Positions 1,003 through 59,300 of a stretch of 64,000 nucleotides of DNA are shown here, piece by piece (position 1 is the first letter of the stretch; every line of letters starts with the position of its first letter). Origin of the DNA: Zygnema cylindricum (lineage: Eukaryota > Streptophyta > Zygnematophyceae > Zygnematales > Zygnemataceae); the NCBI GenBank assembly GCA_037447655.1, contig JBBHKE010002916.1, positions 1 through 64,000 on the forward strand, written 5' to 3'. The translations under genes were made by a program, and so were the position numbers. Under the pieces are notes generated by a model. It was not told the origin of the DNA. It searched no databases and saw only the letters and a program-made list of their open reading frames with translations.

Positions 1003-1862
1003 GGATAAATTAAAAAGCACGATGGTAAACCATCTGTGTCCAGGGGTACAAAAGGGGTGGTATGGCCAAAACTGAAAAACTACAATAAAAAACAAATAGA
1101 GCGATGGGAACACAATAAAAAAAGAAACAAACAACAAAGAAAATAAAAGCACCCAAACTCAAAACGAAAAGCACGGCAACTCACAAAACCAAAACTACAA
1201 CCCCAACCGTAAATCAATTAAAAATCTACAAAAAGCAACCCCGTAAATCCCCCCAGCCTAGGAGCACGTTGAGGGAGTTCCGGAACACGGTGACGATCCA
1301 TAACCCCAACAGCCGATCGGAGGATAATAGAAGCTTGCACTCGCTGTAAAGCCACCGATAAGCTTTGACGATAAAAAGAAGTAAGGACCGAAGGTGGAGG
1401 GCTGCCAGGTCCTCGGCGCCCAAAAGCACGTCGAGCACAAGTACGGAGAAACTCGTTCAGTGCAACACCCAAACAACCAAAGATCTCGACCGCCATCGGA
1501 ATAAAGTCATCCATAGGGTCCCGGTGGGCATAATCATGCTCCTTTGCCTTAGCGGCATCACGAGCTGCCACCCCAAAATGTCGAGCTGCCTGACCAACAA
1601 CTGTAGCTGAAGTAGGGTTCGCCATAACAATATCACCGAAGGTGCGACGGGCACCATCAAGCAAAACAACATCGATCCGACGCAAGGGAATAATATGAGA
1701 AACCTCTCGACGCACAGAAAAGCCCCCCTCCGAAGCGATAGTCGCAACGGTGTCGCGAATAGTGTTGTGCGCCTAGATCAAATCTCCCCCATGGGAACAG
1801 CGAGGCAAATGCACACCATCGGGCCCCAAGACACGACCACAGCTGTGCACACCTCCGCACTA
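1003..1862 (-). pseudogene. LINE-type reverse transcriptase C-terminus, degenerate copy A
   Basis: The minus strand encodes the tail of a non-LTR retrotransposon ORF2. In order it shows a Cys/His knuckle (CGRVLGPDGVHLPRC), then DIVMANPTSATVV, FIPMAVEIFGCLGVALNEFL and a tail with FYRQ and SVALQR. The block FIPxAVExFGCL is, from memory, common in the C-terminal part of plant and algal LINE-like polyproteins. A stop interrupts the frame near 1785, just after CSHGGDLI. The same protein is present at 49471-50880 at roughly 70% identity by eye, and both copies end in a shared untranslated stretch. The polymerase core is absent, so this is a 5'-truncated dead copy. The assignment to a particular LINE clade is inference. 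Confidence 0.6.
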
Positions 1863-2024
1863 AAAAATAAGGTTAATAACTTGCGGCCCTATGAACCGCG
1901 TATCAAATATTAAAATGATAGCAACAGACACTATACATGATCTTGGCCAAACCGCCGACAAAAATACGGCTCCACGAAAGGTATTAAACTATTTATGCAA
2001 TTGGGGATTGGCGGTTTCTGTTCT
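1863..2024. other. Short spacer, nothing recognised
   Basis: Sequence between the LINE fragment and the left arm of the foldback element. No gene is supported. Confidence 0.4.
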
Positions 2025-3710
2025 GAATTTGGGAGAAATTTTAAAATGGGAATTGATCATGGTAGTGACTGTTTTGGTTGCGCACAGTCACTTACGTCAT
2101 TTTGTCAAAAATTGTACGTTTGAAGTACACATTGGTACAAATAAAGCACCCTGAGTACAAATTTGACGATCAATCGGTTGGACAACTTTGACTTTCGAAA
2201 TATTGTTTCAACCGCTTAAAATTTTGCCGCGCTTGCGAACGTCGACCGTCATAATAAAATTAGAAATTCACATGGCCAGCGAACATTTACGGTAACAAAA
2301 CTACGACAACTACATGTAAATTAAAGTGTTGCAGACAGTCACTTTTTGTCGTTACGTGAGCTCCACGGTTGGAGCGATACTTATGCAAGATCAAGGGAAA
2401 GGCCTTCAACCCATCGCCTACGACAGTCGAAAACTAAAGGCAGGAGAGCTGAACTGGGCCACCCATGAGAAGGAGACAATAGCTATCATCAATGCGTTGG
2501 AGGTTTGGAAGTGTTACGTTCAAGGAAAACGGATCACAATTATCACGGATCACCACGCCTTACAATATCTCCAAACCCAGCCGAAGTTGTCCAAGAAACA
2601 AGTGCGCTGGGTGACGTTTCTGCAGACCTTCGGCCCGAAACTTGTCATAGAATATAAGCCGGGCAAAACGAACCTGGCGGATGCGCTGTCAAGAAGACCC
2701 GCAGTCGCTGCGCCAGTAGCGGAGCAACGACCGCAAGCATCGCAGTATGGGAACGTAAGCTCTGCGAAAGAGGACATCGCAGCGTCAACCGCAGATCAAG
2801 ATCCGAAACTCAGCGCAGTCACCAGTACGGTGCAGGTGGACGAACAATGGTTAAGTCGGATAAAGGCCGCCTACGGCGACAATGATTCACTAAAAAATTA
2901 CTAGAAATTTATGCCGTATGATGATTGTCGTATCATTATTGTCGTATGATGATTTCGTACTCTGATACATGGTACGCAAGTGAAGATTTGAAGTTAAGTT
3001 TGTCGGTGCTAAAAATCTGAAAGATATTCAATATCGGGTCGTAGCTTGCGTGGTGTCAGTCAATTTAGAACAAGTGGTGTGGTTTACAAACTCTTCGTGA
3101 TGGAACATCGACTCAATCGACCCGGTCTGTAGAGTTGGCCGTACGATTTCAGAAACGTATGATGGAACTTCACCGTTAGACACAAGTTAAAAGAAGACGT
3201 CATATGGATAAATTAACTTGCATGAAACGAAATAAAACTTCGTACTAAGAGAAAAAAACGTAGCCGAGTAGAAATATCGATAAAATTAAATGATAAAAAT
3301 GCGCCTCATCACTTAAGAATATTGTCCTTTAAGTGCGTACTTTATTATGTCTTTACGTGCGCATTTTACTTTTTCCGTGCGCATTTATCATTCGCGGCAA
3401 AGTCGCTGAAAGTGGAAAGTACCTGCGCGTAGCAATTTTATTTACATGTGGTTTCCGCAGTTTTGCTACAGTAAACCTTGGTCGGCCGTGTGAATTGTTG
3501 ATTTTCTTATGACGGTCGACGTTCGCAAGCGCGACACTTTTTTAACCGTCGTTACAATATTTCACAAGTCAAATTTGTTCGACAGATTGGCCGTGAAACC
3601 TAAACTCAAAGGTACGTAACTTATACTAATCTGTACTTAAAATGTATAATTTTTGACAAGTTGATGCAAGTGACTGCGCAAAGCAAAAATTGTCATTGCG
3701 ATTAGCAATT
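2025..3710. mobile_element. Long-arm foldback DNA element carrying a Gypsy fragment
   Basis: The left arm (about 2025-2345), read in reverse complement, aligns with the right arm (about 3415-3710) over some 300 bp. The best core reads TATGACGGTCGACGTTCGCA on the plus strand at about 3508 and in reverse complement at about 2240. The outer ends converge on a sequence like GCAATTCC. A third fragment of the same arm is at 25229-25275. Between the arms lie a Ty3/Gypsy RNase H fragment and about 500 bp of unassigned DNA. No transposase is visible, so the element is non-autonomous. The exact termini and target duplication were not resolved, and the superfamily is unknown. Confidence 0.6.
2326..2904 (+). 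pseudogene. Ty3/Gypsy RNase H fragment
   Basis: The translated open frame contains the RNase H domain typical of Ty3/Gypsy polyproteins: GAILMQDQGKGLQPIAYDSR, then NWATHEKETIAIINALEVWK, TDHHALQYL, and the closing KPGKTNLADALSRRP that precedes the integrase linker. Recognisable homology starts near 2350. The residues before it do not match the expected DAS motif, which marks the break. Reverse transcriptase is missing upstream, and no integrase follows the stop at 2902-2904. The fragment sits between the two arms of a foldback element, so it looks captured rather than independently inserted. Its composition is more GC-rich than the flanks. Confidence 0.85.
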
Positions 3711-31300: not shown

Positions 31301-34300
31301 ATGTTTTTGCAGCTCTTAAAGAACGATGTATGTTATGAGAATGGTATAGGGAGTAAACCTTTAAGCCTTTAAAAGTATAATGGAGGTTAGGAATGGATGT
31401 TTGTTATTTATGCTTGTATTTATGTTATTATCGGCAGATGTTATGAGAATGAACCTCTAATTTATAATTGATGTTAGTAGCTTGATGGGCTTTTCGGAGT
31501 CGTGCAACTCCCAAGTGATGTCAACAGGTTATGAAATAAGTGTTATGATGTTGATTTATGCCATGATGACTACAGTTAAGCTCCTAATGCTTTAATATAG
31601 TCATCGTAAAGACGATGAAATAACGTAATCTTTTGTATGAATATCAGGTTGCAATGTTTGTGTAACCATGTCTCTAAAACGGAACCAATTGGGCTTTTTA
31701 CAAAAGTCCAACAAGCTAATTGTGTATGCGTGAACTAAAAAGGATTGGACTGAGAATTAATGAAAGATACATTAAGAAATTACCGGGAAGTTGATTAAAA
31801 AGAACCATTCGAAACATTCATGCTCGAGGTTGAGATGTGTGGAAATATTTCACACAAGATGTCATGACACATCATTTTCTCTCTTAATGTTTCTTTTGAA
31901 TCCATTAAGATGCCTTCTTGTCAGAGGACCTCACGCTCTAGAAAACCCGTGGACAAGAAACCCAAAGGGTTTAGAGGCCCTTCGTTTTTTCCGGATTCAA
32001 GAAAGTACTGATTTTTTTGAAAGTGACATTAATTGTTTGTATAGGAGGACCTGGCCCATGTCACAATTTTTCGCACAATGTCACCAAGCGTCTACAAACC
32101 GGTTATGATCCATATATTATTGCGGTCTTGTTTTATGATATGATAAAGATTATTCTTTTTTTCTCTTAAATCGGAGTGTAGTGTTGCATATCAGACTGGA
32201 CTTTTGTACTTTCTGATACGATGTTTGTACAACGCAGAAGCCAATTTTGGCAACAACCATTTGTTACTCTCTAGGCTTTGAGACAGCTTAAATATCCAAT
32301 CACCTAGAGTTGTTAGGGGTGTGGTCTTACAGTGTGATTTTTGTCGTTTTTTCTTTGCGCTTTGTTTTTGCTTCATTTTTGCAGTTAGTAATCTTTCTGT
32401 TAACATATCTAAAAGGAAATATACAAATACTTGTATGCCATGTCCATTTACACCTGTGTGAACTAGGTAAATACTCTGTCTGACACCACAGAATAGGGCA
32501 AAAGTAAAAAACGATGTTTTCGGTGAAAAAATTCTCGACTTTTGATACACTGCCAACATTTGGCGAAACTGGAAATCGCCAAAAACCTTAGCCTCCCCGA
32601 TTATGCAAAAGGTTCCGATACAGCACTAGGAATTTCCTCATTGACCGAGGAAATAATTGGGTGAATTTTCTTAAGCATTAATTTAAAATTTTAAGTTGAT
32701 GATTGTTTGTTGCCATGTCATGTGCAATGAATGTATCTTTTTCTAACATTGAAAATCAGTATTTGATGTTTATTTATATCGGTTGTAACATAATTTACCA
32801 AACTTACAGTAGCTAATCTAATCTCATCTTTCCCTTCTGACCTTATACAATTTACAATTTTCTTTCGTCTCCACTTTCATGAAGCTTGAGGCAAATCCTT
32901 CCTTTTGTGTTTGAAATTGCTGTGATTTCAGGCCTTGACTGTACAGAATTGGAGCCAATCGAATGTAATTTTGAACCAGTTCCTCACGAATCTAAAAAAG
33001 AACCTCGACGCGAATCAGCCGTAGCTTGTATGGAGGACGCTTTTTGCGATAAAACAATGGGACTTTGTCGATGTGGACCCAATACCCCTTTTCCCATGCG
33101 TTCAGTTCCAGAGCAATGTGGTACAATCCGTACGTGAGTTTAACATCTTGCAATGGCTTGAGAATTGAGAGTAATATCATTGGACATTTTTGTTTCTTTT
33201 TCGCATTTTTCCCCATTACTTTTCTGTATTTCGTTTTATAGAAATTGCTCAGTTTTATGATGTTGTTTTCATCTGTAAAGCTGTACAGATCCATCTTATG
33301 AGTCTATTGGACTTGCACTATATTGAACTTTTTTGCTCGTTTAAAACTTACTTTTCTACATGTGTTGCCTCCATGACTTTCTAAACAGTAAAGGCAAACC
33401 GGTCACCACTAATCTAGGTGTACTAATAGAGCAATCACAGTGAGAAAATTAATCTTTGGTAATAATGACCTTTTTCAATAGCTCTGGATTTTGTTCTTTT
33501 TATTTTGTGCTCAAGTTTTCTTGTAACACCCATGGATTTGAATCAAAAACCTAAAAAACCCGTAACATGACTCATTGTTCCACCCTTGCATATGGATTAT
33601 AAGTTGATTAGTTCAAGTCTTGTTTAATCGCTAAAAAATGGGATGGTTGGAGGTGAATGGGTAAAATTGCAGAGAGTACGGAGCCGCGTGGAATGAAAAA
33701 TTGAAGAAAGATTTGTTTTCTAACGATACAGAAAGACCAGGATGGTGTTTTGCTGATCCAGTCAAAAGAGGACGAATAAAACCTCGAAAATTGTGTCATT
33801 GTACATTCGATGGACAGTTCGGGGAGCTTTGTGAGATTCCAATTCGTCATTACTGTGTTAACGGTTGTAGCAACCACGGAAACTGTGATAACGGATACTG
33901 CCAGGTGGTTTCTTTGGCCGTTGGACTGACAGTTCAAATGTGCGAAAACTATTATAGTCATATTACACCTCTATTATACCGTATCATATTGTATTAACCT
34001 GTGTTATATTGTATTAATCATACTCTCAGGTGGTGACTTTTCTTTGGCCCTTGGACTCATATTTCAAATCTATTTGTATTACCGAATTATACGGGTATTA
34101 TACCACTTTTACCGTTTTACTGTATAACGCCTGTATTATACCATATTATATTGTATTATACCGTATTATGCTTTGTATAGTATGGGGTAATCATACTGCC
34201 AAGTGGCGACTTTTCTTTGGCCCTCGGACTCACAGTTCAAATGTGTGTGAACAATTAGAGTCGTATTATACCGTATTATAAACACTATATGTTGTTAACC

Positions 34301-37300
34301 CATACTATACGCGAAGTATACGTAGATAGTATGGGGTAACAGCATATAGTGTTTCCAAATGTTTACGTACATTTGAACTATGCTCAACTAAAAGAATTTA
34401 TACTCTGAAGTACTGTGAAAGGTTAAAACTTGTGCTTTTGTCTCAAATCCCAGTCTCAACTAATAAAGGCACTTCTAAAAAATAACGGTTAATTATTATG
34501 CTTGAGAATAGATGGAACTTTTTTCATCTAGTTCATAACTCTTTTTTTACCTGACTTTTGACTTTATCTTTTTGTGTCATGTTTTGGTCTTGAATACTTT
34601 TTCTGTATGGGGAACATAATTGGACAGTGTGAGAATGGATGGTACGGTGTCGACTGCAGTATCCCTTCTATTTCGTCCTTTCCTGTGGATGAGACAACAG
34701 TGCCATGGCTATGGCCTCCCTCCTCCCCTTTTCCTATTTCCTTTCCCCCTCAAATATCTCTAGGGGAAGAGATCTCAAGGTCCACTCTGGAAATCGCCCC
34801 TTCAAAGCTTGAGGAGGGAAAAGAAGAGACCCAGACGTTTGTATGGAAAAGAAAACGGCCTTTGATTTATGTGTACGAGTTACCGGGAGACTTTACCTCT
34901 CATATCTTGCGGGTAATTTTTGGTCCATTTTTGAATTGCTGTGCAAAAAAATGTTAGAACTGCGTCAGAAAAGACTGAAAACAAAAATAAATAAATTAAA
35001 AATGCTCAAAACTGCAAAATACAAACTGCGTAAAAAAAATCATCATCATTATCATCAACATCATCATTGTTTTTCTGAGTCAAAATGCTTCAGAAAACAA
35101 GTCAGAAACTATGATGAAAATATGTCAGAAATCATCCTTTTTTCAAATGTAAATTTTCGACAGTCGGTTGGTTTTCGCCCATTTTAGCCCCTGCCATAAT
35201 AGGATACATATGTATGAGTATAGTAATATGTTTAAAGCCCCATTTATACCCAAAAAATAGATGCGAAGAAATAGAATCTTGGAATAGGTGCCCATGCACT
35301 TAAAATTCTTTGAAGGCCCACTTTTGTTACTTTGGAAGTTTGACTCCTAGTTAATGAAGGAACTCTAAAAATTAATTAAGCGGGGTTTATATGCAGGGCC
35401 GTCCAGTTCCGTATTTCTGCGTTCCGTGGATATACACCCCGCTAAACGAAACTGAGTGGAACTACAGGTTTTTGTACGGAATGGAGGTATGTTACAGAAA
35501 AAAACGGTTGTAATATGTATTGTAAAGAAAAAGAAATGTCAGAATCCAAAAAACCTAAAGCATGGGTCAGTTTCGTAATAATTTCCATGTAAATGTTTGA
35601 AGTATTGATAGCTGTCCCGTGACTAATTATTATTATTATTATTTTTTCTTTATTTTCTTTTTCTTTTTTTGACATGGGAAAGCCGGTATTATACGAGTTG
35701 CTTTTGTCGAGTCAGCATCGGACAACTAATGGAGATGAAGCCGATTTTTTTTTTGTTCCCATTTTTGGAGGCTGTATTATTGCCCGGGCAGATTTATCTC
35801 CTCTTTACGCCTATGAGGTTTGTGAATCTCTTCTTTGTTTCCTTTTTTTTCAACTTTCCTTAGGGGCCATTCCTTACGGTTCTACCACTCCTCTGTTTCT
35901 TTTTCTTAAATTTTTATCAGAGGCTGCCCTTTCCTTGATGCTTTTTCCTCTCATTTGTTTCCCTTTTTTTTCCTACTTTTTTAGAGGCGTTTTTGTCATG
36001 CTTCCCTTTGTCTTTGAGCTTCAGTTACCTTTGGTTTTGCAATAGAGTTCTGTGCAATATTTGTTTTTTCACAGTTTCTGTTTCCGTTATTTTGCGACAG
36101 CCTCGACACCAAGAATCTCGTCCTCACGTCTATGTCGATTATGCTATTCGTGCTTACGAATATGTACGAGATAACTTTCCCTATTGGAATCGTACAGGCG
36201 GCCGTGACCACCTCTGGGTAAAAAGCAATCTCCATTTTCACAAAAAAATTATGTTTCATACGCCATCTGTCGTCGTTTTTTTTTCTGTTTAGTTTTTAGT
36301 ATTTGCAAATGATATTCTCCTTATTGCCTGGCATCAATAGTTATCTGAAACCGAGTGCATGTTTTGCGTCGTTGTGGAAATATTCTGCAGATTGCTCCTT
36401 TTTCTCCTTCTCCTTCTCCTCTGTCTTCTCGATCATCATTGTTGTCAAAACATCTTACATTTGTTTGTTTTTGTAAAATCACAGACTTTCCCTTGGGATG
36501 AAGGCTCCTGCTATGCTCCGAGAGTGATACGGAATAGTACGTTACTTTCATCATTCGGGAATACTGGGACTAAATACAAGAAATCCACAACTGCATATTA
36601 TTTTGACCTTTGGAGTAAGATCTCTTGGGAAATTAGAGGAGACGACCCATGTTTCGACCCAACCAAAGATATTGTCTTACCAGCATGGAAAGCTCCGGCA
36701 ACAGAACACATTAACGGACGTTTATGGGCCAGGCGAGTTGCGAATGTTTTTCTTTTTTTTGTTATTTTTAATTCATTTCTATACATTTCTTTAGGACTCA
36801 AGTGCACTGGCGTTTTTATTATTATTATTATCTGTCTCTCAGTAATGTTCCTATCGTGAACAGTAATTAGTTGCTGGTACAAATGCAGGTTGGTTTTTTT
36901 TACAAATTGGTTCGTGTAATGCGTATTTTTGTTTTTTCAAATGAAACTATGGGTTTTATAGGTTTTTTTTTTTGTACGTGTGTGTGTTTGAGATACATTA
37001 CTCAACATGTGAACAAGTAACCAAAACAGTAATTTCTCTGGAGTCTTAAACTTTTCTTGGGAATGGAATCTTATATTTGTGTGGCATGCAACCTGTAAAA
37101 CTCCTAAGAAAACCCTAAAAACCCTAATTCGAAAGCCTAAAAAACTCCAAAAAGACCATAAACGTCCGAAAACGTTTTAAACATGTTCAGCAATTGTGAC
37201 TCATGAGCAATTGTGACTCATGTAACAGACCCTTCGAGGAGCGACTAACTCTTTTTTATTTCAACGGAAACTTGGGACAAGAGTTTAAAGATCGACCTGA

Positions 37301-40300
37301 ACCCTTGTAGGTTTTTCTTTTACCTACGGTTCTTGTCGTTCTTCGGTCACTTAGACCGCGGAAACACCCAAGACTATTGCATCCCCAGCAATGAACACTA
37401 TAGGCCAATGCGCACTCAAGAATGAATGATAACAAACACCCTCATACTCAAAACAAACTTACAACACCTTAGGACGACTCCTTCAGATTTACACATAAAA
37501 AAGGTTGACAAACTTAAACAACGCTCAACACATGAGGCAAACACATAAAACACTTAATGATAACAATATACTTGAGTCATCAACTAACCTCACACTTCTC
37601 ATTAAAGGAACAAGATCACAATGTAGTCTATGTCTTCTACTTGAGCACTTTACACACTCGATAACTCTCAAGTCCTATATCTTTGGATTCTACTTTTCTC
37701 AAGATATAGTTGTCTATAAGGCTCAAAGAAATATATACGATTGTGAGCTACCTATAACAACAAAAATACTAAATGCGCACGTCCTATAATTGGTCAACTT
37801 GATATCCTTTATTGGCTATTCATCCATTAAATGTTAGCCTAAGTAGATTCCTTTAAACTACTCTAATATGTTTGTATGTACAACTACGAATTGTTACTTC
37901 CTTTAGATTACTTATCATTGGACGCATTTTATCTTTTAAGTTTCATAGAAGGACTACCTGTACTATTGTAAGTACGCCAACATTTATGCACGAGTGTTTT
38001 GGTCCATAATGCCGTACAGTATAATCGTTGTCGCGTATAGGTTGCGGGGACCACTTGTCAAATGTTTTCGTGCTACATGACTAAAGTTCATGCTTCCCTA
38101 CGGTCATAAAGAATTTTTGTACCCGATCGCTTCGGCGAAGTATACTTTTCTCCACAGCCCTGTTCTTTCGTTTCAACTCGTTCGTACTGTTGTAAACAAT
38201 CCACGTCTTACTCCCCGAATGTTATCGCGCCACATGTTTAGTCACCGCTTCAAATCCGGATCGGTTTTTTGATGTGATCCTCCAAATGCTATCGTACCAT
38301 GACATATGAATCCACCACCAAGTACATCTTCTCCGTATGTCAAGTAAATAAACATTCATTCCATCGGCGCTTTTTCCCCCACTTTCCGTACCTCTAATTT
38401 GTGCCTGCATTGAAATCGCTTACTGTGCATGTAACCAAATCTTCAATTACAATAGTTCTCAGGCATCAGTATCAACCTACATTACTCAGTGATACACCAT
38501 GATACACCGTGAATCAGAATTAATAGTCACGTTTGAGGCCTCTTCAGCCATAGAAGACCTTGCAAAAGTCAACCCAAACTGACGATTCCGGGCAGCTAAC
38601 TTAGTACAGTCCGATCTTAATTAACAGAAGGAAATAAGGATCACAAAGTTATGCTCCCTCAAGGTTTCATTTTAATTGCACTTTGTGCATCTCTTAAACT
38701 AACTCAGAAAATGTACAAGCTTGACAATTTCTTTAAGAATTCTTATATATATTAGCCTGCATGCCTGCCTGCCTGCCTGAGCAGTACTTCGAATGTACCT
38801 AACTGTTTGACTGCACCTAGTCATTCTTTTGAAAGACCGTCCACCTGTACCTATCAGACTATCAATGAAAAGAGGGTCTTTCATGTCAGTTCATACTTGG
38901 CGTTTATGGATCCCGGTTTTGTATTATTTGTACTTTTGATTCCTTAAAGGAATCTTTCTTTTCCACACTATTAGTGGTCAATAGTTTTTCCCCAATTTTC
39001 CATTATTTCTCTAAGTTTTGGTGGTCTCTGTCTATCTCAGACATCTCAGTTAACAGGTAAAGCTTACGAAAGCGTATATAACATTACTCGCCTTAAGCTT
39101 TAGAAGCTTTAGCCATTAAGTCCACATGCATTGCAACAAAACTCTAACAGAGCTGGTAGAGCTGTTGTTATCATATCAGCAATCATTTTAGCATTTGGCG
39201 GGTAACTCAACTTAAGAACTTGAGCAAAAACCTTTTTCCTCACAAAGTGTAGTTGAATGTCCATGTGCTTGCTCTTGAAGTGATGACTTGGATTGGTAGC
39301 AACCTATATAGCTGCTTAATTGTCGCACCAAACGACTTGTGTTCCTTGTTGTGTGAACCCGAGCTCGTGCAAAAATGCAGTGACCCACAGGAGTTCTTTC
39401 ACAGCTGAACTGGCTGCCATGTACTCCACTTCCATTGTCGATGAGCAGTCACTTTCTGTAGCTTGTTGCTCCAACAACAGGTTCCTTGTCTCACCTGCAA
39501 TACATATTGTGTTGTTGACACATAACTAGCATCACTCCATGTGTTTATAGTGTCTTCATCTCCCCTTAGGTTCAGCCACAAATTTCTAGTTCCAACTAAG
39601 TATCGAAGAACCCTTTCAGCTGCTTCCCAATCTGACCTTTTCGGATTCTGTAAGCTTCTGCTAAGAACTCCTACAGCTGCTGTAGTGTCCGGACAAGTAC
39701 AGGTCATAAAGTAAATCAGACTTCCTACCACTTGCCTGCACGGGATCTGAGACATAGACTCTTGCTCCCCTGATTTCAGACTTGTCTCCTACTAAGACTC
39801 CATATTCACAATCTTGTCACTCTAGTTTGTGTTTGAACTCCATGGGTGTAGCACAACTCTTAGCATCTGTCATCCCGAACTTTTCAAGCATGTTCCCGGT
39901 GGCTTCCTTTTGTGTTTACTGAATAATTCTTGTGCCTCTATCCCTCTCTACCTTTATGCCCGAGATATACTTGGCCTGTTTCAAGTCCTTCATCTCGAAC
40001 CTAGAATTTAAAGTCGTTTTTCTCTCTTTCCTCTCCCTCTATTGACTTGCTAATGATGAGTAGATCATCGACCTAGGCTGCGATGAATATGACTTCATCT
40101 ATGTTGTCAGAGTTCATTACTGCTTCTAGTAAAGCCCAGCCCAGTTAAGAATTCATCTAACTTTAGATTCCATTGTCTAAAGGCTTGCTTTAGTCCATAT
40201 AAAGATTTCAGCAGTTTATTAACCAGATTCTCTTGCCCTACTTCTTCATACATCTCCGATTGTTTCATATATATTTCCTCTCCTAACAGTCCATGCAAAA

Positions 40301-42473
40301 ATGTTGTCTTCACACCCATTTGATGTATATCTAGATCCTTTCTTGCAGCTAAGGCTAGAAGTATGACAGATGGGAAATGCACAACCACGGAAAATGTTTT
40401 CTCAAAATCTATCCCCTCTTTCCGATTGAAACCCTTAGCTATCACCGTGCTTTCTACCTTTCAATTGTGTTATCTGCGTTAAGTTTGACTTTAAAAACCT
40501 GTTTACTCCCGATCGCTGTTCCATCTGGGTGAAGATTCACGAGCTCCCATGTTTGGTCTTCCATTATGGATCTCCTTGTTAACTCCCTTTTCCAATTTTC
40601 TCTCGCTGGGTAAATAAATAGAGCAGTCACTCCACAAGCGTAAAGACCGAAAACAAGGCTTTAAATTACGTATGCGAAACAGGTACAAAAGTATTAGTCA
40701 CACTAAATTGTGAGGCATCGAGCTGAATCTTTTCGACGACAGATTCGTACTTTATCATATCGCGGTATGGTAGAATAATCACCCTATTGCTGGTTTTTCG
40801 CCTCAAATATCTCAATCTTTCAAATGTTTCCCTTATAGCATTTGAAGCATTAGAAAGTCTCAAATGAACTCCTGCAGGACATAGGCGATTACCTAGTGGT
40901 AGTTGTGTTTGTGTTAAGTTTCCTCTCAATGACTTTGTGATATTTGTTGGATTGGCACGTGAATGCCGGTTCAATACGGTGTAGAATGTGATACGTCGCA
41001 CTCGAAGCCGCCTAAAAAAGATAGGTACGGACCCGCCAGGCTCTAGATCGAGATGGTGGCACAGTGGTTAGTGCGCTGACAGCTCAAGCCAGGGGGACCA
41101 GGTTTACATGGACAATTATGACCGGCTACCTCTCGAGGGGGGGTGTTGACGTACGTAAAACGTGCGATCGATACCCGGAATTGTGGTAAAATCCACTCTA
41201 AATACCTATATAAAATTGGACCCACCAGCGTAACATGTGAGCTGGTGGCACAGTGGTAGTACGTTCACAGCTAAAGTGAAAGGTCCCAGGTTCAAATCCT
41301 GGTCGGCTCATCAATCCCTTTATTGGGATCGTCCATTCTAGCCCCCGATTCTAGCCCCCGATTCTAGGAATCTTAACATGGTATCAGAGCCAGCAGGATT
41401 GCGGATGGTGTGACCGGCCTTCCCGTGAGGGGGGGTGTTGGATTGGCACGTGAATGCCGGTTTAATACGGGGTAGAATGCGATAAGTCACACTCGAAGCC
41501 GCCTAAAAGAAATAGGTACGGACCCGCCAGGCTCTACATCGAGCTGGTGGCACAGTGGTTAGTGCGCTGACAGCTCAAGTCAGAGGTCCCAGGTTCGAGC
41601 CCTGGCCGGCTCACTTTTCCCTAGTATGGGACATGCCGAATCCCGGATTTCACGGAAATCAACATGGTATCAGAGCAAGGGGGCGTTGGCAAGCCACACG
41701 AGATGGAGTACATCGTGAGGGGGCGTGTTGGAGGAATGTCCACTTCGGACTCCACACGTGTGTATCGCAGTAAATGCTGGTTCCGCCAGTGCGCCGTTCA
41801 TTGCCGTAAATTTGGTTTCAGGCGCTGCTTGAATGCACATCGGCCGGGTAGCTCAGTTGGTAGAGGTAGTGTACGGCTAACATAAGGTCCCGGGTTTGAT
41901 CCCCGGCTTGGCCATTTTTCAAAATTTTCACTTTGGCGCCCATGCGATATGTTGAATATCGCCGATCCTCAATAATATTCATGGGGGCGATCGGGCTCAA
42001 TACGATGATGACTTTGTTTGAATTGGGAAACAGAAGCTTCGGAGTTTGATAGCCATCTTAGAGTCAAAAGCAGGAAGTCTTCAAACGCAGAAACTCGATT
42101 TTTCTCTTAGAGTCAAAAGCAGGAAAGTATTAAAAGAAAATAATTGATTGGCTTCTTAGAGTGAAAACACGAAAATGTTGAAAGCGACAGCTTAGAAATT
42201 TTATTGCCTTCTTAAAGTCAAATGCAGCAAAAATTTTAAAAGCAGAAGAAATGATTGGCTTAAAATGTTAAAAGCAAAAATTTATATCATTGGAAATTTG
42301 TCTGCCTTTGAGTCAAAGCAGGTATTGGGAGAGGGGACAGGTATTCCATGGGGATTCGACAGAAAGTAGCACATTATTTTGCATCCATAGAAAATCAGGA
42401 GCACAAGAAGGGGGTGAAGGCCGAGAAGGGAGTCATTGTGACCAATAAGCATTCTCCGGACTATGGACAACAG
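25344..42473 (+). CDS. ExAD-like GT47 exostosin-family glycosyltransferase with EGF modules (3' end not found)
   Basis: Probable Golgi type II glycosyltransferase. Exons: 25344-25721, 27153-27246, 32932-33133, 33673-33904, 34628-34912, 35397-35486, 35683-35817, 36101-36217, 36485-36732, 37229-37306, 42341-42473. That is 1992 bp, 664 residues, all phases matching. Exon 1 has a signal anchor (MAAMVFAALLFVVLDFLELG) and a Ser/Pro stem. Exon 2 is an EGF-like module (CPGDCGGNGICNFELGECRC). Exons 3-5 hold more cysteine modules, ending CSNHGNCDNGYCQCENGWYG. Exons 5-11 form the exostosin domain: LIYVYELPGDF, DEADFFFVPIFGG, WDEGSCYAPRVIRNSTLL, LFYFNGNLG, YSMGIRQKV. The module order resembles Arabidopsis ExAD (extensin arabinosyltransferase), from memory. 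The donor after exon 9 is AG|GC. The C-terminal GT47 part (expected GDGW region, about 100-130 residues) was not located, so the gene is truncated, or its last exons lie elsewhere or were missed. Confidence 0.85.
26255..26410. repeat. Purine minisatellite in intron 1 of the GT47 gene
   Basis: Tandem copies of a 19-bp unit GGGAGGGAGGGGAGAAGAA. A second, irregular GA-rich tract covers about 26740-27115, just upstream of exon 2. Confidence 0.85.
27374..27604. mobile_element. Degenerate TA-type foldback element in GT47 intron 2
   Basis: Matches the 21941 element through GACCAATCGAAAGGTAAGAG-like and GTGTGTATGGAGAAAAATGA segments. The inverted end similarity is AGGTnTAnACGATTATCA against the left end. 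Its ends are eroded. Confidence 0.5.
28059..28673 (-). pseudogene. Copia RNase H remnant
   Basis: The open frame reads through the RNase H C-terminal half. It includes the acidic residue in TDSQGALALMQ and the VHHKHTKHIHIQ motif, then runs out of register into low complexity. A neighbouring frame holds SYIPTEDPVVDYFTKAL, showing an indel. It continues into the LTR without a domain. Confidence 0.65.
28745..28937. mobile_element. TA-flanked hairpin MITE, 193 bp
   Basis: Starts TACACCGTGAATCGTAATTA and ends TAATTACGCTTCACGGTGTA. The two halves pair along nearly their whole length, for example CATCTTTTCTCTGTGCACAC against GTGTACGGAGAAAATATG. The TA ends are consistent with a TA target. It is nested in the minus-strand Copia remnant and is the best-preserved short member of the family. 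Confidence 0.8.
30898..32931. other. Rest of GT47 intron 2, nothing recognised
   Basis: No gene, no clear repeat. AT-rich intronic sequence up to the acceptor TTTCAG before exon 3. Confidence 0.5.
33903..34260. repeat. Tandem triplication starting at the exon 4 donor of the GT47 gene
   Basis: Three diverged copies begin at about 33903, 34027 and 34196. Each contains CAGGTGG- or AAGTGGC-like sequence, then TTTCTTTGGCCnTnGGACT, followed by TATTATACCGTATTATAnTG stretches. Copy 1 contains the authentic exon 4 end and splice donor. Confidence 0.65.
34281..34355. repeat. 29-bp-stem inverted repeat in GT47 intron 4
   Basis: AAACACTATATGTTGTTAAC with CCATACTAT pairs with ATAGTATGG and GGTAACAGCATATAGTGTTT across a 17-bp loop, with only a couple of mismatches. 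It is a hairpin of unknown origin. Confidence 0.7.
37307..39089. other. First part of GT47 intron 10, nothing recognised
   Basis: No coding exon of the glycosyltransferase found. A lone TACACCGTGAATCAGAATTA end of the TA-type elements is at 38491-38510, and a TGCC repeat at about 38759-38780. Confidence 0.4.
39090..40600 (-). pseudogene. Decayed Copia reverse transcriptase/RNase H in GT47 intron 10
   Basis: Minus-strand remnants in order: MEDQTWELVNLHPDGTA and FKVKLNADNTIER (about 40590-40460), then IAKGFNRKEGIDFEKTFSVV, LLKSLYGLKQAFRQWNLKLD (reverse transcriptase, 40445-40107), CRQVVGSLIYFMTC and AERVLRYLVGTRNLW (39755-39399). In shifted frames comes an RNase H with EYMAASSAVKELLWV and HHFKSKHMDIQLHFVR, ending near 39100. 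Frameshifts, stops and the absence of Gag and integrase show a dead fragment. The protein resembles the intact-length Copia at 55.4-61.7 kb but is not the same copy. No LTRs were identified. Confidence 0.8.
41050..41112 (+). other. Truncated tRNA-like segment in LTR1
   Basis: Matches the LTR3 tRNA-like sequence from the acceptor stem to the anticodon arm (GGTGGCACAGTGGTTAGTGC, then CTGACAGCTCAAGCCAG). It loses register in the T arm, where the LTR is deleted and fused to downstream sequence. Confidence 0.55.
41239..41310 (+). tRNA. tRNA-like cloverleaf in LTR2
   Basis: Foldable as a 72-nt cloverleaf: acceptor GAGCTGG/TCGGCTC (with GU pairs), D arm GCAC-loop-GTAC (one mismatch), anticodon stem TTCAC/GTGAA with loop AGCTAAA, and T arm CCAGG-TTCAAAT-CCTGG. 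Internal A and B box motifs are present. Base 33 is G instead of the nearly universal U, so a role in translation is doubtful. A TATA-like CCTATATAAAATTGG lies 20-35 bp upstream. Confidence 0.5.
41541..41613 (+). tRNA. tRNA-like cloverleaf in LTR3
   Basis: 73 nt fold with every stem paired: acceptor GAGCTGG/CCGGCTC, D arm GCAC/GTGC, anticodon stem CTGAC/GTCAG with loop AGCTCAA (nominal anticodon CTC, but base 33 is G), T arm CCAGG-TTCGAGC-CCTGG. The A box (GGCACAGTGG region) and B box (GGTTCGAGCCC) of a Pol III promoter are intact. It begins 105 bp into the LTR. It may be a genuine tRNA gene captured by the element or a selected Pol III promoter module. Confidence 0.55.
41842..41914 (+). tRNA. 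tRNA-like sequence in LTR4, different tRNA type
   Basis: Acceptor GGCCGGG/CTTGGCC (GU pairs), canonical TAGCTCAGTTGGTAGAG D-arm start, and T arm CCGGG-TTTGATC-CCCGG. The anticodon arm is imperfect, so no anticodon is assigned. It is clearly a different parent tRNA from those in LTR1-LTR3. Confidence 0.45.
41961..42340. other. End of GT47 intron 10
   Basis: About five diverged copies of a word like CTTAGAGTCAAAAGCAGGAA form an irregular tandem repeat (42050-42320), which runs up to the exon 11 acceptor GGGGACAG. Confidence 0.6.
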
Positions 42474-56391: not shown

Positions 56392-59300
56392 GGTTATGGG
56401 CCCACCCTCTAGGGTGCCCACCTTCAATGGATCACGGTTCATCTATTGGGAAGCCATGATGATGCGGGCTTTGTGCGAAAAACGATACTCGGGTATTGTT
56501 AGTGGACAAGTGAAACGTCCACCTCAGAGAACTCCACCAGGGTTTGGAGGAATAAGGTTTGCTGCAGCAACCTCTAATGCAACAGAGGAGGCAGATGATG
56601 GGGACAACAGTGTGTCCGAAAAAGGGAAGGAGAAGGAGACGCCTCTTACTCCAATTGCTCCTATTACCACGGCACCCGGAGCGCAACCGTGAAGACCGCG
56701 GAGAACGACACCTAAACGTGGGAAGACATCAACATGGCTGCCAAAAATTTCATCGTAAGACACCTCACTCAAGCTTTGGTAACCCCCCATCATCACATTT
56801 ACAATGCCGAGGAGTTGTGGGTGAGTTTAGTGGAAATCTATAGAGTTGGTGCTATTAAGGAGCCCTGTTGGCTAATTAGAAGTTGGGAAATTATACTTAC
56901 AAATGGGGAAAGATATTAGACTATTGTAATGATCTCTCTTGTTTGTATATGGAGATGGAGAGTGCCGAGTGGATAGGTACAATGAAGATGAAAGTTAACA
57001 CTCTCATCATGAAGTTACCCGACGAGTATGAAAACATAGTGAATTGAGTACAAGAAATGACTGACAGTTCATCGAAGTGAACCACAGTGGTCAGGATGAT
57101 ACTTGTGCAGGAGAACACAATTAAGATTAGGAGGGGGGGAGTGCATCCAAGCTCTAGCTGCAAGAGGAAACCGATGGGGGGAAGATCTGAATAAACCATT
57201 CAAAGAAGAGAGAGATCAGTTGGAGGACCTAGGCCCCCAAAAGGCCTTTGTCATTTTTGCAAAAATCTAGGACACTTTATCGCGGATTGTGTCAAGCTGT
57301 CAGAGTTGAGGCTCCAAGAGAACCCTGGAGGGGGTTCTTCCGGATGGAAGAAAAAGGCACTTGTGGTCACAAAAGTGATTGGAGAAACCAAGGACGATTC
57401 ATCTGAGGAGGATGGGGAGCTTATTCTTCACGAGAGTCAGGAGAAGAAGAAGATCCCTCGGAGACAAAAGTGTGCCCTTGGAGCACCGAGAAGCTCCACA
57501 TGAGGATGGATCATCGACTCAAGTGCATCCATGCATATGTGTCGTGATAAGCAACTCTTCACTAAGCTAAGAAAGATCCCTACTGTAGAGATAGAGTATG
57601 GGGATGGGAGAGTGGTTACTACAGATCTAGTGGGGTCAGTAGATTTGACAGTCTTAGTGGAGGGTCAGACTTCTCTACTCACATTCTCAGATGTACTCTA
57701 CATTCCTCAGCTGAGTAAAATCTTGTCTCTACATCTGTGTTAGATGACAAAGAGTTTGATACCTTCACTAGAAAGGGAGTTTTCACAGCTAAGTTTGGGG
57801 ATGAAGTCTACATCAAGGCAGATAACGGTAGCCAAGGCATGTTTAGGCTTAATCTGGTTAATGAAAAGAAGAATGCTTATTATGTTGGTGTTCCAAAATT
57901 GATGATTTGGCATAAGCGGTTGGGGCATGTGCATTTTGATAGGTTGAGGGAAATGAAGAATCTTGGTGTAGTAGAAGGCATTCAGTTTGATCATAATGAA
58001 ATGGTGGATGATTGTAGTGGATGTGCTCAAGGAAAAGCTCACAGACTTTCTTTTCCCAAAGCCGCCAAATATAGGGGGGAAAAGATACTAGATCCAGTCC
58101 ACACAAATATATGGGGACCTGCAAGTGTACCTTCGGTTGGAGGGAAGAGGTTTATGTTAACAATAACCGATGAGTGGTCTAGGTACTCTAGAGTCTACTT
58201 CCTAAAAACAAAGTCTGAAACACCGACTTACTTCAAAGAATATAAAGCCTGGAGTGAGAAGTTGTATGGAACCCACATTATGAGAATAAGGAGTGATAAT
58301 GGGGGAGAATATACCTCTAAACAGTTTGAGGAATACCAGAGAGAGATGAGGGACTTAAGCACCAGAAAACTGTACTATATAACCCAGAACAAAATGGGGT
58401 AGCTGAAAGATTGAACCGAACACTAGGAGATAAAATGGGGTAGTTGAAAGATTGAACCAAACACTAGGAGATAGTGTATGTAGTATGTTGGTTGACAAGA
58501 AAATAGGAAAGAGATTTTGGGTAGAAGCCATGAACTGTGCCAACTACATTAAGAATAGAGTCCTTACCTCATCCGTAAAGGGAATGACACTTTATGAGAG
58601 ATGGGCTAGAAGGAAACCTGATATCTCACACCTTAAAGTATTCGGTAGCCAAGTTTACTTACTTGATACGGATAAGAAAAAATGGAAACTAGATGCTAAG
58701 GGCAAGCCTGGATACTTTGTAGAATATGATGAGGATGCCAAGGGATATAGAGTCTATGACTTAGCAAAGCAAGATATTATTCTGGTCAAACACCTAGTTG
58801 TCATGGATGATGAGAAGTCATTTGACCCCTTCAAATATACGAATAAGATAAAAATCCGTTTTTGAGTCTGAAAGCGAGGAGAGTCCTATCTTTCTCGAAA
58901 AGGACATGAGTGAAAGAGTGATTGCAGATTCAAGGGAGATCCAAGATACAAGAGATCTACCGGACACCTCACATATTCCTATGGACTTCGAGGAGACAGA
59001 AGAGAAAGAATTGGAACCGGCTTCCATGAATAGAGGACCTGATTAGACAGTAAGGAGAAACCCGAGACTTCTTTCCATTCCAACTTTAGAGTTTAACGGA
59101 GGGAGAAGGAGCAGCAAAAGGATGAGCCTCAGTCATACTTGGAGGTAGTGATCAGCCCAGAAAAAGATAGATGGATTAGAGCCATAAATGATGAGATGGC
59201 TTCCATCATGGAAGCAAATACTTGGGAACTAGCAGATTGTCCTCCACACAGAAAACCTATAGGCTGTAAATGGGTATTTAAACTAAAACTAAACCCAGAT

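What the first reader, a model, noticed from the sequence alone, without database searches (positions are those of the whole stretch)
40945..41960. Miniature LTR retrotransposons whose LTRs carry tRNA-like cloverleaves
Seen: LTR-like units of 229-235 bp with TGTTG...AACA ends, the initiator tRNA-Met primer site TGGTATCAGAGC right after two of them, purine tracts before the next, and internal regions of only 57 and 61 bp. Each LTR carries a tRNA-like sequence at a similar offset (95-116 bp). Known: Cassandra TRIMs carry a 5S rRNA promoter in their LTRs. I know of no well-established tRNA counterpart, though I cannot search. Inference: a Pol III module placed in the LTR may drive or start the genomic RNA. 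This is the strongest candidate for something undescribed here.
Basis: partly seen in the sequence, partly recalled or inferred. Interest (0 to 1): 0.87.

Follow-up and report, generated by a model that had tools for sequence, protein, structure and literature searches.

The report
Mini retrotransposons with tRNA-like LTRs
A green plant's genome carries many tiny parasitic DNA elements whose repeated ends hold a tRNA look-alike; this type (Helenus) was described in 2024, and the copies here add evidence that the tRNA-like fold itself is preserved and that different families get joined together.

Summary
Window 40940-41979 is an array of gene-less LTR-retrotransposon units (TRIMs) whose LTRs carry tRNA-like cloverleaves at a fixed offset. 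LTR types run A (cut), B, A', C, with PBS and PPT at the joints and one 5-bp target duplication (ATATT) around the whole array. Copies of each type lie elsewhere in the same 352.8-Mb genome: 35 of 67 elements with both outer ends held have a perfect 5-bp duplication, against 0.8% for mispaired flanks. The 'unknown tRNA counterpart of Cassandra' is known: Helenus (Kojima 2024, PMC10886601), where Selaginella is the only plant listed. So this is a new member of a known kind, in a green plant not identified to species. Beyond what I read of that paper: the cloverleaf is maintained by compensatory changes (two in the anticodon stem, one in the D stem), and arrays mix types, with all five joints between unlike types among 74 units at the LTR/PBS boundary. 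Best reading: the cloverleaf is Pol III promoter and R region of an RNA copied in trans by another element, probably Copia-type. Transcription and the partner are not shown. T-run avoidance was tested and is not significant; U5 hairpin energies are unremarkable in five of six types.

The parts
40940..40944 (+). left target site duplication ATATT of the whole array
   Evidence: equal to 41975-41979
40945..41088 (+). LTR type A, 5' part, cut within its tRNA-like part (which begins at 41050); the ungapped similarity to A' runs on to 41104
   Evidence: (92% to 41436-41595)
41089..41143 (+). internal region of type B, 3' part, with purine tract 41135-41143
41144..41378 (+). LTR type B, 235 bp (221-223 bp in most copies elsewhere), TATA-like stretch 41207-41215
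41239..41310 (+). tRNA-like cloverleaf of LTR-B
   Evidence: 45.3 bits
41379..41435 (+). internal region type A, 57 bp: PBS 41379-41390, purine tract 41427-41435; joint between unlike types, LTR-B / internal A
41436..41664 (+). LTR type A (A'), 229 bp
41541..41613 (+). tRNA-like cloverleaf of LTR-A', followed by TTTT at 41615-41618
   Evidence: (54.6 bits)
41665..41725 (+). internal region type C, 61 bp: PBS 41665-41676, purine tract 41717-41725; joint between unlike types, LTR-A' / internal C
41726..41974 (+). LTR type C, 249 bp, ends CAATA
41842..41913 (+). tRNA-like cloverleaf of LTR-C, followed by TTTTT at 41915-41919
   Evidence: relatives folded; not called
41975..41979 (+). right target site duplication ATATT

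Best explanation
These are non-autonomous LTR retrotransposons of the Helenus type: gene-less TRIMs whose LTR is U3, then a tRNA-like cloverleaf, then a short U5. Shown: LTR-PBS-PPT-LTR anatomy, 5-bp target duplications, several families in one genome, and a cloverleaf kept by compensatory change. Inferred, about 0.65: RNA starts at the cloverleaf of the left LTR from its internal Pol III promoter and ends at or after the cloverleaf of the right LTR, so the cloverleaf is the R region used for the first strand jump. Inferred, about 0.85: initiator tRNA-Met primes at the PBS and an autonomous element (5-bp duplications suggest Copia, as in Kojima's fungal families) supplies the proteins in trans. 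Inferred, about 0.45: mixed arrays arise before integration, when the plus strand of one family (LTR plus PBS copy) anneals to the PBS end of another family's minus strand.
For: Anatomy. Genome copies: (48 PBS-to-PPT matches against 1 for the reversed pattern). Target duplications: 35 of 67 elements, control 109 of 13200 mispaired trials; same-type LTR pairs up to 100% identical, so recent activity. tRNA-like part at a fixed offset: ARAGORN finds it in 38 of 39 A LTRs; offset 105 or 106 (0-based) in 49 of 58 A, 94 or 95 in 37 of 40 B, 112-114 in 18 of 23 C. Cloverleaf: 21 pairs on 25 chosen copies, 96.8% of cells paired against 93.0% shuffled and 25-37% slid; 20 double-change cells against 5.2 shuffled; covariation 0.167 against 0.097, reached by 0 of 500 shuffles. 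Upstream, by eye: TATA-like stretch near -33, clear in B, B', A2 and C', weak in A and C; ACATC just before the cloverleaf in five of six representatives, TCATC in B'. Joints: 74 units in 101 loci; internal type equals right-hand LTR type in 72 of 72 classified (1 tie, 1 right side unclassified); left LTR of another main type in 5. All three 4-LTR arrays have an outer duplication.
Against: No transcript data. TTTT within 12 bases after the cloverleaf in 46 of 46 A LTRs, 6 of 20 C and 1 of 27 B, so Pol III might stop in the left LTR. Scarcity of other TTTT is not significant (1 seen, 3.9 expected, P 0.16). U5 hairpins recur in six of six representatives, but energies are not unusual in five. 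On the covariation test two measures are weaker or contrary: pairs with a double change 4 against 2.7 shuffled (15 of 500 reach it), further pair types 10 against 11.3 (495 of 500 reach it); the tool warns that shuffles ignore relatedness, and the pattern that picked the copies fixed most of the acceptor ends. End pieces of five Copia elements lack this PBS and PPT, so no partner was found. 32 of 67 elements have no perfect duplication. Five joints are few, and the type C query held internal region and LTR together, which favours seeing them joined.
Confidence: 0.8

Rival explanations
1. The tRNA-like part has no Pol III role. The RNA is made by Pol II from the TATA-like box, and the cloverleaf is an RNA structure kept for packaging, end processing by RNase P and RNase Z, or strand transfer.
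For: Two compensatory changes lie in the anticodon stem, which is in neither box A nor box B. The B' D stem changes a box A base while keeping its pair. TTTT follows the cloverleaf in A, A2 and C'. A TATA-like stretch near -33 fits Pol II too.
Against: The commonest box A and box B forms stand in 35 and 32 of 39 A LTRs, and Cassandra, the nearest tested relative, is reported to start and end its RNA in its 5S part by Pol III (PMC10886601).
Confidence: 0.25
2. SINEs inserted into unrelated repeats, so that the tRNA-like part is an accident of some copies.
For: The tRNA-like part may have entered an ancestral LTR as a SINE, as Kojima proposes.
Against: It sits at the same offset in nearly all LTRs of each family examined, and 5-bp duplications flank the LTR element. 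A SINE tail was not searched for.
Confidence: 0.03
3. The mixed arrays arose after integration by unequal or ectopic homologous recombination between dispersed copies, not during reverse transcription.
For: Same-type arrays of 3-4 LTRs occur here, and such recombination is one account given for TRIM and Cassandra arrays (passages of PMC7215508 and PMC11899658). L080, a B/C array, and others lack an outer duplication.
Against: The window array and L079 keep an outer 5-bp duplication. The five joints between unlike main types sit at LTR/PBS, none at the also shared PPT/LTR boundary. The LTR in L079 that changes from C to B does so inside the cloverleaf, as a first strand jump would give.
Confidence: 0.45
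4. A cluster of working tRNA genes.
For: ARAGORN and Rfam call two tRNAs.
Against: Odd anticodon calls, Pyl and Glu; the base before the anticodon is G in the commonest A and B loops and C in about half of C, where tRNAs have U33 (numbering recalled); embedded in LTRs with PBS and PPT.
Confidence: 0.02

Closest known systems
Helenus (Kojima 2024, PMC10886601)
   Same: [quoted passage not shown] several families per genome; tandem arrays reported for one fish family.
   Different: Sizes differ from the one listed plant family (Helenus-1_SMo: LTR 120 bp, internal 85 bp; here LTR 222-249, internal 57-66). Cloverleaf covariation shown here, whereas the paper says predicted structures do not support function as tRNA. 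Mixed-type arrays not mentioned in the sections read.
Cassandra
   Same: TRIM with a small-RNA Pol III module in the LTR; tandem arrays in plants (passages of PMC7215508).
   Different: 5S rRNA rather than tRNA.
TA-TRIMs (Gao et al. 2016, PMC4717578, passages read)
   Same: Tandem arrays of TRIMs with three or more LTRs.
   Different: No 5S found outside Cassandra there, tRNA-like parts not mentioned in the passages; TRIMs not found in Physcomitrella there.
tRNA-derived SINEs
   Same: Box A and box B of tRNA origin.
   Different: No LTR, PBS or PPT; copied by LINE proteins (recalled, and PMC10886601 introduction).

Membership tests
TRIM | two LTRs, PBS, PPT, under about 1 kb, no protein gene | tested here: met
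   units of about 510-555 bp; internal regions of 57-66 bp leave no room for a gene
TRIM | target site duplication on insertion | tested here: met
   35 of 67, control 0.8%
Helenus | tRNA-derived sequence within both LTRs | tested here: met
Helenus | boxes A and B conserved | tested here: met
   commonest form in 35 of 39 (box A) and 32 of 39 (box B) A LTRs, compared by eye with a recalled consensus
Helenus | 5-bp duplications in plants and fungi | tested here: met
Helenus | PBS complementary to a host tRNA | tested here: inconclusive
   PBS equals the complement of plant initiator tRNA-Met 3' end from recall; the host tRNA was not retrieved
Helenus | sequence match to a published Helenus family | not testable with these tools
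   Repbase not available
Helenus | mobilised by an autonomous LTR retrotransposon | tested here: inconclusive
   end pieces of five Copia elements do not hold this PBS or PPT
Cassandra | 5S rRNA-derived sequence in the LTR | tested here: not met
   Rfam finds tRNA and no 5S in the window at gathering scores
SINE | no LTRs, 3' tail, LINE-type insertion | tested here: not met
   LTR, PBS and PPT present; tail not searched for

The most novel reading that the evidence does not exclude
The cloverleaf is selected as an RNA fold, not only as a promoter. [quoted passage not shown]
Probability: 0.3. Interest if true: 0.6.

Novelty: new member of a known kind. Interest (0 to 1): 0.36.

Why it matters
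It adds Helenus-type elements in a green plant whose families differ in size from the one plant family listed in 2024. Six types or subtypes with some near-identical LTR pairs lie in one genome, so the open question of that paper (is the tRNA-like part a working Pol III promoter?) becomes testable in a green host. The compensatory changes argue that the fold matters as well. The mixed arrays record recombination between element families, which bears on how TRIM arrays form.

Tried and rejected
Rejected: SINE insertion (fixed offset, element-level duplications); working tRNA genes; Cassandra (no 5S). Avoidance of TTTT along the transcript as a sign of Pol III: 1 seen, 3.9 expected, P 0.16, not significant. 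U5 hairpins: same layout in six of six representatives, but energies not unusual in five of six; C has P 0.046. A stretch upstream of the cloverleaf shared by A and B types (GGACCCRCCAG, read by eye) can pair with it; P 0.15, 0.05, 0.037 and 0.037 in A, A2, B', B, and 0.55 and 0.85 in C', C: suggestive at best. Autonomous partner: end pieces of five elements out of 150 scored RVT_2 matches (two with LTRs seen on both sides, one with unclear repeats, two on the 3' side only) lack this PBS and PPT; partner not found. Host: no RbcL match in the assembly, 88 matches to the chlorophyll a/b binding family, one LHC protein searched: species not identified. The SAM_LFY search rang nowhere, controls included, and tells nothing.
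Full report
What is there. One search shows, from 40940 to 41979: ATATT; an LTR of type A cut within its tRNA-like part; the 3' part of a type B internal region; LTR-B (41144-41378); a 57-bp internal region; LTR-A' (41436-41664); a 61-bp internal region; LTR-C (41726-41974); ATATT. The two complete internal regions begin with TGGTATCAGAGC, and all three end in a purine tract. ARAGORN and Rfam find the tRNA-like parts of B and A'; that of C is not called.

Copies elsewhere. The window lies in a 352.8-Mb genome of 2689 contigs. Searches with LTR-A' plus internal C, LTR-B, and internal C plus LTR-C report 74, 74 and 68 matches, with 1023, 832 and 308 first-look candidates of which 40 were scored each time. 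A PBS-to-PPT pattern gives 48 matches against 1 for the reversed control and shows further internal types, A2 and C'. Representative sizes (LTR + internal): A 229+57, A2 229+57, B 222+66, B' 223+66, C 246+61, C' 246+61.

They are LTR elements. Of 67 elements whose two outer ends lie in the loci then held, 35 have a perfect 5-bp duplication (slip of up to 3 bases allowed). Mispairing left and right flanks gives 109 in 13200 trials. By LTR number: 7 of 23 with one LTR, 22 of 36 with two, 3 of 5 with three, 3 of 3 with four. First and last LTR of same-type elements run from 80.5 to 100% identity (the figure printed there for L079 compares unlike LTRs and is left out), so some are recent. The loci are top matches of three searches plus chosen stretches, not a random sample.

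The tRNA-like part. ARAGORN finds it in 38 of 39 near-full A LTRs. Its offset is nearly constant within each family. On 25 chosen copies of A, A2, B and B' (7, 5, 7 and 6 of the 26, 6, 25 and 7 that one search listed), the cloverleaf pairs in 96.8% of cells. Four pairs have double changes, three of them in six or seven copies: column pairs 11-24 (D stem), 27-43 and 29-41 (anticodon stem); the fourth is in one copy. The pattern fixed most of the acceptor ends and part of the D stem's 5' side, so the acceptor stem says little; the anticodon stem was free. Two other measures are weaker or contrary: 4 pairs with double change against 2.7 (15 of 500 shuffles), and fewer further pair types than shuffled. 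As A and B types share the sequence just upstream, the cloverleaf probably descends from one capture and was then kept as a fold. The isolated tRNA-like part has the full cloverleaf as minimum-energy structure in A2 and B, and all but its mismatched pairs in B' and C' (C' with a longer D stem); C is close, A folds otherwise. Their energies are not unusual against shuffles (z -0.74 to -1.85). Kojima states that predicted structures do not support function as tRNA; the covariation here is evidence for the fold, not for use as a tRNA.

Signals around it. By eye: a TATA-like stretch near -33, clear in B, B', A2 and C' and weak in A and C; ACATC just before the cloverleaf in five of six representatives and TCATC in B'. 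TTTT falls within 12 bases after the cloverleaf in 46 of 46 A, 1 of 27 B and 6 of 20 C LTRs whose cloverleaf ends the script recognised, from 58, 40 and 23 LTRs in the sets. Other TTTT runs are few, but not significantly so. Two U5 hairpins recur in six of six representatives; energies are unusual only in C, P 0.046.

Mixed arrays. In 101 loci, 74 distinct PBS-internal units were classed by five types. 58 are uniform. In 5 the left LTR is of another main type: three B/C, one B/A, one A/C. In 5 more it differs only at subtype level: four A2-like LTR ends with internal A, one C with C'; the former may be end variants of A. One internal region ties between A and A2; 5 left sides are unclassified. 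Internal and right-hand LTR agree in all 72 units where both were classed. Two of the five main-type joints are in the window, the others in L079, L080 and L085; L079 and L080 were fetched because their hits adjoined. A sixth, in L086, with a degenerate PBS, was seen by eye. The left LTR of L079 changes from type C to type B inside the cloverleaf. The window array and L079 keep an outer duplication; L080 does not. This fits strand transfer at cloverleaf and PBS during reverse transcription, but recombination between integrated copies is about as likely on five joints.

Known or new. Searches of the paper library (listings seen) led me to one paper on tRNA-bearing TRIMs: PMC10886601. I read its abstract, introduction, results, discussion, legends and tables, not its methods, conclusions or supplement. 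It defines Helenus and lists Selaginella moellendorffii as the only plant. PMC7215508, PMC11899658 and PMC4717578 were read in passages only; they describe tandem arrays of Cassandra, LTR elements and TRIMs. I saw no report of mixed-type Helenus arrays in these, which is not proof of absence.

Host. Chlorophyll a/b binding genes are present (88 matches), and the PBS is that of plant initiator tRNA-Met (recalled). Among the 120 of 2997 listed matches of one LHC protein, those named with a land plant reach 89% at most, and entries without an organism name reach 91-93%. I take the host to be a streptophyte, by inference; the species is not known to me.

Verdict. The feature is real, in part recent, and of a published kind. 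The specific families, the covariation of the cloverleaf and the mixed joints are the additions. Transcription by Pol III and the helper element remain inference.

Noticed in passing
window 1777-1967 (-): U2 spliceosomal RNA match, 60.9 bits.
   Followed up: no
window 2326-2904 (+), 40107-40460 (-), 57719-58865 (+): Fragments with reverse-transcriptase RNase H (PF17917) and with Copia-like pol domains; the RVT_2 fragment lies just left of the array. The PBS and PPT of the array occur nowhere else in the window within 2 mismatches.
   Followed up: partly
window 33665-36859 (+): Exon-like open frames, one with an exostosin GT47 match below the curated cut-off and, by eye, EGF-like cysteine stretches.
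   Followed up: no
G000, 150 scored RVT_2 matches: Very many Copia elements, many with open frames of about 1454-1489 aa; 22405 first-look candidates.
   Followed up: partly
PBS list of held loci: The PBS varies within families: after TGGTATC come mostly AG, GG or AA, then AGC, perhaps from several primer tRNA forms.
   Followed up: no
L083 (C927) and L100 (C2176): Type C and C' units in inverted arrangement.
   Followed up: no
G000:C704 107034 and 122137: Two B elements 15 kb apart with equal match scores, spacing and left flank, perhaps a local duplication.
   Followed up: no
G000:C519 3496-34847: A cluster of chlorophyll a/b binding gene matches on one contig.
   Followed up: no
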